A stretch of 64,000 nucleotides of DNA from Planctomycetota bacterium (lineage in GTDB: Bacteria > Planctomycetota > Phycisphaerae > Phycisphaerales > Phycisphaeraceae): positions 3,968,001-4,032,000 of the forward strand of contig CP066225.1 of assembly GCA_016350165.1 (NCBI GenBank), read 5' to 3'. The translations under genes were made by a program, and so were the position numbers. Below are positions 4,496 to 38,310 of the stretch, piece after piece. The notes under the pieces are model-generated. The model had not been told where the DNA came from and searched no databases. It saw nothing but the letters and a program-made list of their open reading frames with translations. The number at the start of each line of letters is the position of its first letter. Position 1 is the first letter of the stretch.

Positions 4496-4735
4496 TGTGC
4501 GCGCAAAAATAAAAGAACTCAAACAGCAAAACCTCGAAATGCGCGCACGAAACCAAGCAAACTTTCAATAAACAGCCCAAAACTCACCCAAACCATCGCA
4601 TTTCTGATGAAACCCAGCCCGTTATGACTTGTTTGGGCCCATTTCTAACCATTTCTGATTTTCAGCTTCTCGCAACACTCAACTACTGACAAAACAAACA
4701 TTTACAACTTCAAAATGCGGTTTTATGCGCGCAAA
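4496..4735 (-). repeat. Dispersed intergenic element, copy A (inverted relative to B and C)
   Basis: The 568-bp gap between the hydrolase and the first SDR holds no gene. On the minus strand it reads TGCGCGCA (4726-4733, inside an imperfect CGGTTTT/AAAACCG hairpin), then AGAAATGG units (complement at 4640-4656 and 4599-4606), then TGCGCGCA (4540-4547) and GTGCGCGC-type sequence (4497-4505). The two adjacent AATGG units are 10 bp apart. The same combination occurs at 17.9 and 38.0 kb on the other strand. This copy has the fewest units and looks the most decayed. Confidence 0.6.
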
Positions 4736-17622: not shown

Positions 17623-17724
17623 ACCGGTATCGAGGCGAGGGGCGAGTTGGCGAGATGGAGCTATGGACGAGGGGGAGACGCGGGAAGACGGGAGAGGGTG
17701 GTGAGGGGTGAGGGTGTGGTGCGG

Positions 17725-18037
17725 CGCGCATGAAATGGTTAGAAATTTGTTTTGTAAAAGCGCATAAAAGTGCTGGAATTTGGCGTTTTTTTTGATGGAA
17801 TAGGGGTTGGGGTGGTAAGGCTGGGGGGGGAGTTGTTGCTAATTCAGGGGTTATGGATTTTGGAGATTTGGGGAGCGCGCATGAATACGCTTTTGTGCGC
17901 ACAAAAGCGTGTTTTTTAGGGTTGAAAATGGTCAAGAATGGACAGAAACGGCGCGGAATGGGTTAGAAATGGTCAGAAAATGGTTAGAAATGGACAGTTT
18001 TGAAAATGCTGATTGCGTGTTTATGCGCGCGTTTTGT
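17725..18037 (+). repeat. Dispersed intergenic element, copy B (longest)
   Basis: Lies in a 594-base gap without genes. A partial unit at 17725-17750 has GCGCGCATGAAATGG followed by TTAGAAAT. The main unit holds a 24-bp palindrome (17887-17910), an array at 17921-17997 in which AATGG recurs every 10-11 bp joined by TCAGA, TTAGA or ACAG-type linkers, and a conserved end (18011-18037) containing GATTGCGTGTTTATGCGCGC. That end matches copy C at 38037-38063 almost base for base. Function is unknown; iteron-like protein binding or a transcribed structured RNA are both possible. Confidence 0.65.
17887..17910. repeat. Perfect 24-bp palindrome followed by T6
   Basis: The two 12-base halves (ACGCTTTTGTGC and its exact complement) meet at GCGC. 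The right arm is followed by GTTTTTTAGG. As RNA it would form a terminator-like hairpin; as DNA it is a two-fold symmetric site. It belongs to copy B of the dispersed element. Confidence 0.7.
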
Positions 18038-35892: not shown

Positions 35893-37704
35893 ATGACAGA
35901 GCAATTGCCGACTAGTAGTGATGACGTGCGTTCAAACGCACCTTTGAAATATGCCAAGACCGTCACCTTTGACGGCCCCATCGTTCTTGAGCAGGGTGGT
36001 GAGTTTTCATCGATCGATGTTGTGTATGAAACTTACGGCACGCTTAATCCCCAACGTGATAATGCGATCATGATCTGTCATGCACTGACGGGCGATTCGC
36101 ATGTTGCTGCTCATGATGAGAATGATGATGCGGGTTGGTGGGAGATCATGGTTGGTCCGGATAAACCAATCGACACGAATAAGTACTTCATTATTTGCTC
36201 GAATGTGTTGGGTTCATGTCGTGGCACGACTGGGCCGGGCAGTATTAATCCGGCGACGGGTCAGCCTTATGGCAAAGATTTCCCGTTTATCACAATTAAA
36301 GACATGGTGGACGTGCAGTCGCGCGTTCTTGATCATTTGGGCATCAATAAGCTTTTTGCAGTTGTTGGCGCATCATTGGGTGGCCATCAGGCATTGTGTT
36401 GGGCGACGGAATATCCAGAACGTGTTGGTGCGATTGCTTCGATTGCAACTGGGCCGACATTGACGAGCCAGGCGCTTGCGTTTGATGTGGTGGGTCGTAA
36501 TGCGATTACTTCTGATCCACATTTTCATGGTGGGCAGTATTACGATAAAGAAACAAAACCAAATACAGGTTTGGCGATTGCTCGTATGTTGGGTCACATC
36601 ACGTATTTGTCGCGCGAGTCGATGCGTGAGAAGTTTGATGAGAACAGGTTGGAACCACGTGAGGTTGATACGGAGTTTGAAAAGTACTTCAGTATCAGTA
36701 GTTATCTTGCGTATCAGGGTGATAAGTTTGTTGAACGTTTTGATGCGAACAGTTATGTGGTGATTTCGCTTGCGATGGATCACTTTAACTTGGGTAATAC
36801 GCATGACCAGTTGGCGGATTCGTTGGGTAAATCTGATTGTCGTTGGTTGATTATGAGTTTTAGTAGTGACTGGCTGTTCCCGCCGTTCCAAGCGAAGGGG
36901 ATGCGTAACGCGCTGATTAGCCGTGGTAAGTATGTGAGTTACTGCAATATTCAAAGTGAATGCGGTCACGACGCGTTTTTGTTGCCGAACGAGTTTGAGA
37001 GTTATGGCGGGATTGTCAGAAGGTTCCTTGATACAACGACGGTGGATGCGACATTTGCGGATGTAGATGAGAGCAAGCTGCCGGTGGATGTGCGAAGCAT
37101 CTTTAATCATGAACGTTTGGATTATGATCAGATTTGTAATTTGATCGAGAAAAACAGTAGTGTTCTGGACTTGGGTTGCGGGCAGGGCGGTTTGCTGTTG
37201 CGATTGGCAAGACAGTGTGAGGCATCACGTTTAGTGGGTGTTGAACTGGATGAAGCGAATTTGCAGAAGACTATTTCTTTGGGTTTCGATGTGATTCAAT
37301 CGGACTTGGAGAAGGGTGTTCCGATGTTTGGGGATCAGGAATTTGATTATGTGGTGCTGAGCCAGACGTTGCAGTCGGTGATCAGTACAGAGCAGTTGAT
37401 TGAACAGATGGTGCGGATTGGTAAGAAGTGTATTGTGAGCTTCCCGAACTTTGCGTACAAGGATTTGCGAAACGAGTTGTATCATGAAGGTGTGAGTCCG
37501 GGGACGGAACATGGGCAGTTGAGTTTTAACTGGTTTGATACGCCAAATCGAAGATTCCTGTCGATTAAGGACTGGGAGAATTTCTGTGATCGCAAGGGCG
37601 TGAAGATTTTGGATGCGGTGTGTTTGCAGAGTGAGACGGGGGAGCGGGTTTATGATGATCCGAATCTGAATGCGGACTTGGCGATTTATGTCATTTCCAA
37701 ATGA
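35893..37704 (+). CDS. metX: Homoserine O-acetyltransferase fused to MetW-like methyltransferase domain
   Basis: A 603-residue fusion. Residues ~15-380 are MetX, an alpha/beta-hydrolase-fold enzyme that transfers acetyl from acetyl-CoA to homoserine: NAIMICHALTGDSHV, VLGSCRGTTGP, nucleophile elbow GASLGGHQAL (Ser about residue 160), late Asp in SSDWLFPP and His in SECGHDAFLLP. After a linker, residues ~405-600 are MetW, a SAM-type Rossmann domain (SSVLDLGCGQGGLLLRLA, YVVLSQTLQ, GQLSFNWFDTPNRRFLS). MetW usually is a separate protein encoded right after metX and is needed for MetX activity in several proteobacteria. Fusion here fixes their ratio. Confidence 0.94.
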   Translation: MTEQLPTSSDDVRSNAPLKYAKTVTFDGPIVLEQGGEFSSIDVVYETYGTLNPQRDNAIMICHALTGDSHVAAHDENDDAGWWEIMVGPDKPIDTNKYFIICSNVLGSCRGTTGPGSINPATGQPYGKDFPFITIKDMVDVQSRVLDHLGINKLFAVVGASLGGHQALCWATEYPERVGAIASIATGPTLTSQALAFDVVGRNAITSDPHFHGGQYYDKETKPNTGLAIARMLGHITYLSRESMREKFDENRLEPREVDTEFEKYFSISSYLAYQGDKFVERFDANSYVVISLAMDHFNLGNTHDQLADSLGKSDCRWLIMSFSSDWLFPPFQAKGMRNALISRGKYVSYCNIQSECGHDAFLLPNEFESYGGIVRRFLDTTTVDATFADVDESKLPVDVRSIFNHERLDYDQICNLIEKNSSVLDLGCGQGGLLLRLARQCEASRLVGVELDEANLQKTISLGFDVIQSDLEKGVPMFGDQEFDYVVLSQTLQSVISTEQLIEQMVRIGKKCIVSFPNFAYKDLRNELYHEGVSPGTEHGQLSFNWFDTPNRRFLSIKDWENFCDRKGVKILDAVCLQSETGERVYDDPNLNADLAIYVISK

Positions 37705-37884: not shown

Positions 37885-38063
37885 GTGCGCGGCGCATTTG
37901 TGCGCACGAATGTGAAGGTCGATTGATTTTCGGTGATTTTCCCGTAGTAAGAAATGGGCAGAAATGATTCGTAATGGCTAAGAAATGATGCGGAATGGAT
38001 TGGAAATGGTCAGAAATATGCAGGTTTTGAAGGGGCGATTGCGTGTTTGTGCGCGCGTTTTGT
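37885..38063 (+). repeat. Dispersed intergenic element, copy C
   Basis: In the 606-base gap between converging metX and the TPR gene. GTGCGCGGCGCATTTGTGCGCAC (imperfect palindrome, 37885-37907) is followed by an array at 37948-38024 where AATG(G) recurs every 10-11 bp seven times. It ends with GATTGCGTGTTTGTGCGCGC (38037-38056), nearly identical to copy B. No gene is seen in the rest of the gap. Confidence 0.65.
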
Positions 38064-38310
38064 TTGGTGGTTGGGTTTGGTATGTGGTTTGCTGGGGGAG
38101 TGGATAAGAAGGATTAGTTGCGGTGTCCTTTATGAGGCCGGACTGGCTATTGAGGGGTGAGTGAAGGATGTCGGTGAAGATGGGGTGGCGGGTTGAGGCA
38201 TCCGCGGAGCGAGGCTCTGCGGATAAGGGTGAGTTGCTTCACTGTAGCGTGTCGTTGGTTGGTGATATTTCACAGAAGTATATTGTTGGTTGTCGTTTGG
38301 TTATGGGATA

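What the first reader, a model, noticed from the sequence alone, without database searches (positions are those of the whole stretch)
17725..18037. Intergenic element with AATGG units in helical phase and TGCGCGC palindromes (copy B)
Seen directly: at 17921-17997 AATGG recurs about six times at 10-11 bp steps with similar linkers (TCAGA, TTAGA, ACAGA). It is bounded by a 24-bp palindrome and by a TGCGCGC end. Two other copies of the same design lie at 4.5 and 38.0 kb. Spacing equal to one DNA turn puts all units on one face of the helix, as in iterons or cooperative protein-binding arrays. I know no described element with this structure. It could be a nucleoid or segregation site, a regulator array, or a mobile non-autonomous repeat.
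Basis: partly seen in the sequence, partly recalled or inferred. Interest (0 to 1): 0.75.

Follow-up and report, generated by a model that had tools for sequence, protein, structure and literature searches.

The report
Many origin-like sites across bacterial chromosome
The repeat belongs to a family of about 130 evenly spread DNA elements in a marine bacterium, and nearly every copy tested lies at a spot where the strand composition of the chromosome flips abruptly, as it does at a replication start point, which suggests a bacterial chromosome that is copied from many places instead of one.

Summary
The array is real: copy B has seven AATGG/AACGG units at 10-11 bp steps. It belongs to a ~157-bp family with 130 loci in a 5.23-Mb chromosome whose length equals Poriferisphaera heterotrophicis ZRK32. 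Sister species P. corsica has at least 56.

Where sampled, GC skew in both species is a sawtooth: at elements it steps from negative to positive on the + strand, whichever way the element points, then declines gradually. The step is positive at 76 of 78 elements tested (mean +0.45). All 20 strong steps in 664 contiguous kb lie within 3.3 kb of an element. Genes of both orientations carry the same skew. Stretches of six relatives show no sawtooth. Two elements without a P. corsica counterpart have no step there. No gap between loci is under 10.8 kb, against 28 gaps under 10 kb expected.

Best reading: origin-like sites every ~30 kb, a massively multi-origin bacterial chromosome. This is inferred from sequence only. 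Leading-strand polarity is unproven and gene orientation argues mildly against it. Copy B itself shows no step.

The parts
17875..18031 (+). Copy B of the element (the finding): palindrome, phased array, GCGC-rich right end
   Evidence: Sequence; repeats; model match 17920-18031, 59 bits, positions 49-159 of 160, so its left part is atypical
17884..17913 (.). Copy B palindrome, centred on GTGCGCAC (17895-17902)
   Evidence: Inverted repeat I2
17927..17993 (+). Copy B array: seven AATGG/AACGG units at 10-11 bp steps
   Evidence: Unit starts listed
18020..18031 (+). Copy B right end TTTATGCGCGCG (consensus TTTGTGCGCGCG)
   Evidence: consensus
17724..17748 (+). Partial extra unit upstream of copy B: GCGCGCATGAA and one AATGGTTAGAAAT
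37897..38057 (+). Copy C, full element: left TTTGTGCGCAC (37897-37907), CCCGTAG (37941-37947), array 37953-38009, right TTTGTGCGCGCG (38046-38057)
   Evidence: Sequence; model match 37911-38057, 97.9 bits
38078..38093 (+). sigma54-like -24/-12 motif TGGTATGTGGTTTGCT downstream of copy C
   Evidence: consensus TGGCACGN4TTGCW is recalled; one RpoN gene in the genome
38200..38262 (+). Downstream hairpin (38200-38224) and TTGCTTCACTGTAGCGTGTCGTTGGTTGG (38234-38262), a motif repeated downstream of many copies
   Evidence: 9-mer enrichment +250..+1200
4541..4661 (-). Copy A, degenerate element on the - strand
   Evidence: model match 23 bits
6000..6600 (.). Skew switch (- to +) of copy A, upstream of it in its own orientation (change point about 6574)
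36300..36900 (.). Skew switch (about 0 to +0.46 over 6 kb) of copy C (change point about 36614)

Best explanation
The elements are sequence-specific, origin-like sites: DNA synthesis starts repeatedly in a 0.3-2.7 kb zone just upstream of each element and two forks leave in opposite directions, so the chromosome is copied from more than 100 places about 30 kb apart. Shown: a phased-array element family, and its tight, gene-orientation-independent coincidence with sharp minus-to-plus GC-skew steps in two species. Inferred: that the skew comes from replication, that the G-rich strand is the leading strand, and that the element causes the step. Proposed mechanism (inference): the helically phased AATGG units place protein subunits on one face of the DNA between two GTGCGCRC palindromes and build an initiator or DNA-bending complex. 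In many copies a sigma54-type promoter fires away from the zone; negative supercoiling behind it could help melt the zone. Termination is not fixed: forks meet at variable places between elements, giving the smooth decline.
For: Step positive at 76 of 78 elements, >0.2 at 72; mean -0.25 left, +0.20 right; 40 plus-strand elements +0.47, 38 minus-strand +0.43. Random positions over 6 kb from elements: mean -0.12, 0 of 2529 above 0.3, against 77% of elements. All 20 steps >0.25 in 664 contiguous kb lie within 3.3 kb of an element (two of those elements lie too near a stretch end to be in that call's own list and come). GC3 skew on the element's strand is equal in forward and reverse ORFs: about -0.5 upstream, +0.6 to +0.7 downstream. 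Change point upstream of the element in its own orientation, -2.66 to -0.27 kb, at 70 of 77. Smooth decline between elements; 15 sharp up steps (14 near an element) and 0 sharp down steps. All 6 elements in 200 kb of P. corsica show the step. Six relatives: 2-kb skew sd 0.03-0.10 against 0.26 and 0.31. Two elements absent at the syntenic P. corsica places: no model match at E<=1, best step -0.08 and 0.00 there against +0.60 and +0.70 here. Regular spacing in both species. Relative G009 has negative skew on the low-coordinate side of dnaA, as expected if the leading strand is G-rich.
Against: Three elements in the contiguous stretches have no step, among them copy B and the full-length copy at 240553. 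Of 130 homology-supported ORFs placed relative to a switch, 84 face the element, i.e. would be transcribed head-on to outgoing forks. rpoB in this genome and one ATP-synthase gene in both genomes face the nearest element, while the L2 ribosomal gene in both genomes and one P. corsica ATP-synthase gene point away. Both rRNA operons lie in near-zero skew. No enrichment of DnaA boxes near the elements, no motif at the switch itself, which is not AT-rich, and no upward step in the 3.5 kb around dnaA. No replication measurement was available.
Confidence: 0.6

Rival explanations
1. Terminus or fork-barrier reading: the leading strand is C-rich in this genus, forks converge on the elements, and initiation is dispersed between them.
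For: 84 of 130 placed ORFs face the element, which would be co-directional with incoming forks; rpoB and an ATP-synthase gene face it as well.
Against: G-rich leading strands are the rule in bacteria (recalled), and relative G009 fits it. It needs over 100 sharp two-way traps with diffuse initiation, and the switch lies beside, not at, the element. The L2 ribosomal gene points away from the element in both species.
Confidence: 0.15
2. Another bidirectional strand-asymmetric process centred on the elements, such as programmed breaks with repair synthesis, recombination-dependent replication, single-strand export, or long non-coding transcription outward.
For: Only strand asymmetry is observed, and the sigma54-like promoter (27 of 77 copies) could drive a transcript.
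Against: The skew is the same in genes of both orientations. Resection from a break exposes the strand that would give the opposite sign if cytosine deamination is the cause (reasoning). Copies without the strict promoter motif have larger steps (0.50, 50 copies) than copies with it (0.36, 27 copies).
Confidence: 0.15
3. Scrambled single-origin chromosome: strong skew cut into blocks by inversions at repeats.
For: Repeats with both orientations exist, and one inverted block between the two species was seen.
Against: Inversions give equally sharp steps in both directions; here 15 sharp up steps and 0 sharp down steps, with a gradual decline between.
Confidence: 0.03
4. Mobile repeat or regulator-binding array that merely lands at switches made by something else.
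For: Multi-copy family; sigma54-like motif in 27 of 77 copies; partial tandem copies.
Against: 20 of 20 strong steps at elements, and at two places where P. corsica lacks the element the step is missing as well.
Confidence: 0.07

Closest known systems
Iteron origins of plasmids (RepA/RepE/pi type; recalled)
   Same: Direct repeats in helical phase on one side of the DNA, with flanking palindromes and polar layout
   Different: Chromosomal, about 130 loci, 5-bp core with variable linker, no rep gene found beside the three copies in the window, no AT-rich switch region
Bacterial oriC with DnaA boxes
   Same: Sharp minus-to-plus GC-skew switch
   Different: More than 100 per chromosome, no DnaA-box enrichment, no upward switch around dnaA itself
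Eukaryotic N-domains (human skew domains bounded by origins; titles and abstracts in listing, otherwise recalled)
   Same: Sharp upward skew steps with gradual decline between
   Different: Bacterium, domains of about 30 kb instead of about 1 Mb, each step tied to a recognisable sequence element
Multi-origin archaeal chromosomes
   Same: Several origins on one circular chromosome (passages of PMC3269012)
   Different: Two to four origins (recalled), Orc1/Cdc6 origin boxes; here about 130 loci of an unrelated element
sigma54 promoters with upstream activator sites
   Same: TGGYAYGN4TTGC motif with a repeat array and palindromes 100-200 bp upstream; an RpoN gene is present
   Different: Strict motif in 27 of 77 copies only; does not explain skew; no common downstream gene identified

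Membership tests
Bacterial chromosomal replication origin | Skew switch from lagging-type to leading-type composition | tested here: met
   76 of 78 elements, assuming the G-rich strand is leading
Bacterial chromosomal replication origin | Clustered DnaA boxes | tested here: not met
   TTATCCACA: 2 sites within 300 bp of 77 elements, no clusters. So it is not filed as a DnaA-type oriC
Bacterial chromosomal replication origin | Measured initiation (marker frequency, nascent strands, autonomous replication) | not testable with these tools
   No reads or experiments available
Plasmid iteron origin | Direct repeats in helical phase | tested here: met
   Peaks at 10, 21, 31, 41-42, 52, 62 bp over 77 copies
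Plasmid iteron origin | Cognate Rep protein encoded next to the array | tested here: inconclusive
   No Rep domain among the nine window ORFs scanned, which include the neighbours of the three window copies; other copies not scanned
sigma54 promoter | -24/-12 motif with correct spacing on the element's strand | tested here: met
   27 of 77 copies strict match in +20..+170 forward; seven control zone/strand combinations give 0 or 1. Transcription not tested
MITE / REP-type mobile repeat | Terminal inverted repeats with copies at unrelated sites | tested here: inconclusive
   GYGCGCRC at both ends and 130 dispersed loci; but 6 of 12 P. corsica elements are at conserved positions; target-site duplication and transposase not tested

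The most novel reading that the evidence does not exclude
A naturally massively multi-origin bacterial chromosome: about 130 sequence-specific origins with eukaryote-like spacing of about 30 kb, built on a helically phased AATGG array, acting without a visible dnaA-linked oriC, and possibly present in at least two more families of the same class.
Probability: 0.55. Interest if true: 0.98.

Novelty: categorically new. Interest (0 to 1): 0.95.

Why it matters
Bacterial chromosomes are taught to have one origin. [quoted passage not shown] skew-based suggestions of a few origins exist for Wolbachia, Wigglesworthia, Synechocystis and Mycoplasma pulmonis (PMC3269012, passages). If these elements are origins, a cultivated bacterium has a replicon layout like that of eukaryotes, which reopens how bacteria limit initiation to once per cycle and why one origin is the norm. 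If they are not, an unknown process imprints strand asymmetry of up to about 0.6 around more than 100 specific sites. Both readings are testable with ordinary coverage data from two cultivated, non-pathogenic marine species.

Tried and rejected
Rejected: a structured RNA of a known family (no Rfam match in the window). Transcription as the cause of the skew. Inversion scrambling. A sharp motif at the switch: no strong shared k-mer. DnaA boxes. Replichore-wide orientation: element strands are mixed around the chromosome (71 of 130 plus).

Led nowhere or weak: an exact-pattern scan of genome contigs gave 3 single hits in unrelated genera, about what I estimate by chance; viral contigs gave 0. 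Polarity from highly expressed genes is mixed. The Fourier test on the consensus was not clean: the information content peaked at 11.0 bp and other tracks at 9.9, 5.2 and 5.1; the pair-distance histogram is the evidence for phasing. In one search one of ten sharp up steps in this genome was not near an element in the list used, from which I had removed two elements without steps. One search used 77 of 78 elements (one too near a stretch end). My notebook says 72 of 77 change points lie upstream; the recount is 70 of 77 between -2.66 and -0.27 kb. The relatives were sampled over 60-200 kb each only. Of the 80 elements drawn at random, only the first 60 by position were fetched. The step sizes are aligned on fitted change points and so are flattered at the join.

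Papers: PMC4403523 part 1 of 2 read. Passages only of PMC10945688 and PMC7783415, PMC7111523, PMC5587575 and PMC3269012. All others seen as search listings; one search found none.

Full report
Observation. Copy B of the finding holds seven AATGG/AACGG units at 10-11 bp steps (17927-17993), and no chain longer than two exists elsewhere in the window. It is bounded by a palindrome at 17884-17913 and by TTTATGCGCGCG at 18020-18031. Copy C at 38.0 kb is a full copy; copy A at 4.6 kb is degenerate and on the other strand.

The family. The pattern AATGGNNAGAAATGG (up to 1 mismatch) has 97 hits in the genome against 13 for the reversed pattern. Aligned copies share one layout on the AATGG strand: TTTTGTGCGCRCG, about 20 bp, TGATTTWCCCGTAG, the array with one GCGCG-type linker, then TGCGTGTTTGTGCGCGCG (consensus of 72 matches). 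From the positions, the distance between left and right TGTGCGC motifs is exactly 149 bp in 8 of the 28 copies parsed, 146-148 in four more, 158-159 in two (one turn more) and 128 in copy B (two turns fewer); in the rest I could not pair the motifs cleanly. Unit distances over 77 copies peak at 10, 21, 31, 41-42, 52 and 62 bp, one DNA turn and its multiples. A sequence-only model built from 14 copies finds 144 matches at E<=1; the 135 at E<=0.0136 form 130 loci after merging matches under 2 kb apart. There is no gap under 10.8 kb; 28 gaps under 10 kb are expected for uniform placement and the lowest of 5000 simulations had 14; the coefficient of variation of gaps is 0.66 against 0.99 +/- 0.09. 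The median gap is about 31 kb.

The genome. Its length, 5,234,020 bp, is that of Poriferisphaera heterotrophicis ZRK32, and the only same-genus genome among those searched, G001 at 4,291,168 bp, is that of P. corsica KS4T; both lengths are given in passages of PMC10945688, the second also in PMC7783415. These are Phycisphaerae (Planctomycetota). The names are inferred from lengths.

Strand asymmetry. In 400 contiguous kb the GC skew runs as a sawtooth between about -0.6 and +0.5 with steep rises at elements. Over 78 elements (60 of a random draw, 15 in the contiguous stretch, 3 in the window) the step from the left 5 kb to the right 5 kb on the + strand is positive in 76 and above 0.2 in 72, with mean +0.455. 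Plus- and minus-strand elements give the same sign (+0.47 and +0.43). At positions more than 6 kb from any element the mean is -0.12 and 0 of 2529 exceed 0.3. In 664 contiguous kb (this genome 400 kb, window 64 kb, P. corsica 200 kb) all 20 steps above 0.25 have an element within 3.3 kb (with the element list for two that lie close to a stretch end). Three elements have no step: 212464 and copy B, both truncated matches, and the full-length 240553. Between elements the skew declines gradually, with no sharp downward step.

Cause of the skew. Third-position skew on the element's strand is the same in forward and reverse ORFs, near -0.5 upstream and +0.6 to +0.7 downstream, so it does not follow gene transcription. 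The maximum-likelihood switch lies upstream of the element in its own orientation, between -2.66 and -0.27 kb in 70 of 77 cases; no sequence motif or AT-rich patch marks it. Elements closer to consensus have smaller steps (Spearman -0.42, p 1.5e-4), as expected if new copies need time to imprint a skew, though other readings are possible.

Comparison. P. corsica has at least 56 copies (candidates were capped), with no gap under 15.4 kb, and shows the same sawtooth at all six elements of a 200-kb stretch. Of 12 P. corsica elements whose neighbours could be compared with the stretches held, six lie at the same distance (within 55 bp) from the orthologous gene in both species, two more lie in the same neighbourhood with local insertions, and four could not be judged. 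Two elements of this genome have no counterpart at the syntenic P. corsica place: no model match at E<=1 there, and the step is absent (best -0.08 and 0.00 against +0.60 and +0.70 here). In both places this genome has about 3-4 kb more DNA between the flanking orthologues than P. corsica, so insertion here or loss there are both possible. Stretches of 60-200 kb from six relatives (same family or order, higher GC) have 2-kb skew sd of 0.03-0.10 against 0.26 and 0.31 in the two Poriferisphaera. Among 41 near relatives only the genus has more than one match; two more have a single marginal one. Among 298 genomes of the class, two from other families, G245 and G268, have weak matches; searched permissively they have 13 and 30 matches at E<=0.1, while five other genomes in that call, chosen for many first-look candidates, have 2, 1, 1, 0 and 0. 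Several of these lie at contig ends, as repeats do in drafts. Their sequences were not read.

Promoter-like part. A strict sigma54-type motif (TGGYAYGN4TTGC; consensus recalled) follows the element on the same strand in 27 of 77 copies, against 0 or 1 in seven control zones. The genome has one RpoN gene, as have 23 of 25 genomes searched. Copies without the motif have larger, not smaller, steps (0.50 against 0.36), so it is not needed for the skew. Further downstream a motif TTTCACTnnAGCGTATCGTTGGTT recurs.

Interpretation. A sharp minus-to-plus step independent of gene orientation is the signature of a bidirectional origin when the leading strand is G-rich, as in nearly all bacteria (recalled) and as fits relative G009, where the stretch on the low-coordinate side of dnaA has a negative replication component. 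I therefore read the elements as origin-like sites, one per about 30 kb. Against this: 84 of 130 homology-supported ORFs placed relative to a switch face the element; rpoB here and an ATP-synthase gene in both species face it, while the L2 ribosomal gene in both species and one P. corsica ATP-synthase gene point away; the two rRNA operons of this genome lie in near-zero skew. If the leading strand were C-rich the elements would be termini. Sharp, element-bound switches and diffuse opposite switches favour fixed initiation and diffuse termination. There is no upward step in the 3.5 kb around dnaA and no DnaA-box enrichment near elements. The order has two DnaA-domain genes per genome in 23 of 25 genomes, so that is not special to this genus.

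Prior art. The searches listed no paper, by title or abstract start, that describes such elements or such a skew in Poriferisphaera or other Planctomycetota. Gao 2015 and Xia 2012 discuss possible multiple origins in bacteria on a scale of a few per chromosome, and the Achromatium paper reports 23 potential origins across the diverse genomes of a polyploid cell, fewer than six per single-cell genome (passages).

Verdict. The element and its coincidence with skew switches are firmly shown; that the element causes the switch is well supported by the two cross-species differences but not proven; that the switches are replication origins is the most likely reading (0.6). The copy named in the finding is a truncated copy without a step of its own, so the importance lies in the family and not in that copy.

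Noticed in passing
G245 and G268 (other families of the class), coordinates: 13 and 30 weak matches to the element model at E<=0.1, many at contig ends: the system may exist in at least two further families.
   Followed up: partly
L087-L089 (G000:C1:502000-534000): A 32-kb block of flat, slightly positive skew (about +0.03 to +0.12) without any element, in a sawtooth region: perhaps a recent island.
   Followed up: no
window 38200-38262 and downstream of many copies: A second repeated motif, TTTCACTnnAGCGTATCGTTGGTT, often with a hairpin before it, 200-2000 bp downstream of elements and on the same strand.
   Followed up: partly
77 elements of G000: Homology-supported ORFs downstream of the switch point back towards the element in 58 of 81 cases.
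   Followed up: partly
G000:C1:720216-721724 and 215929-217437: Both rRNA operons lie where skew is near zero or crosses it.
   Followed up: partly
window 35893-37704: One ORF joins an alpha/beta-hydrolase part and a MetW part.
   Followed up: no
CTACTGTnnnnACAGTAG and TCTAATCnnTGATTAGA palindromes downstream of some copies (sequences): Two other recurrent small palindromes near the elements, not analysed.
   Followed up: no
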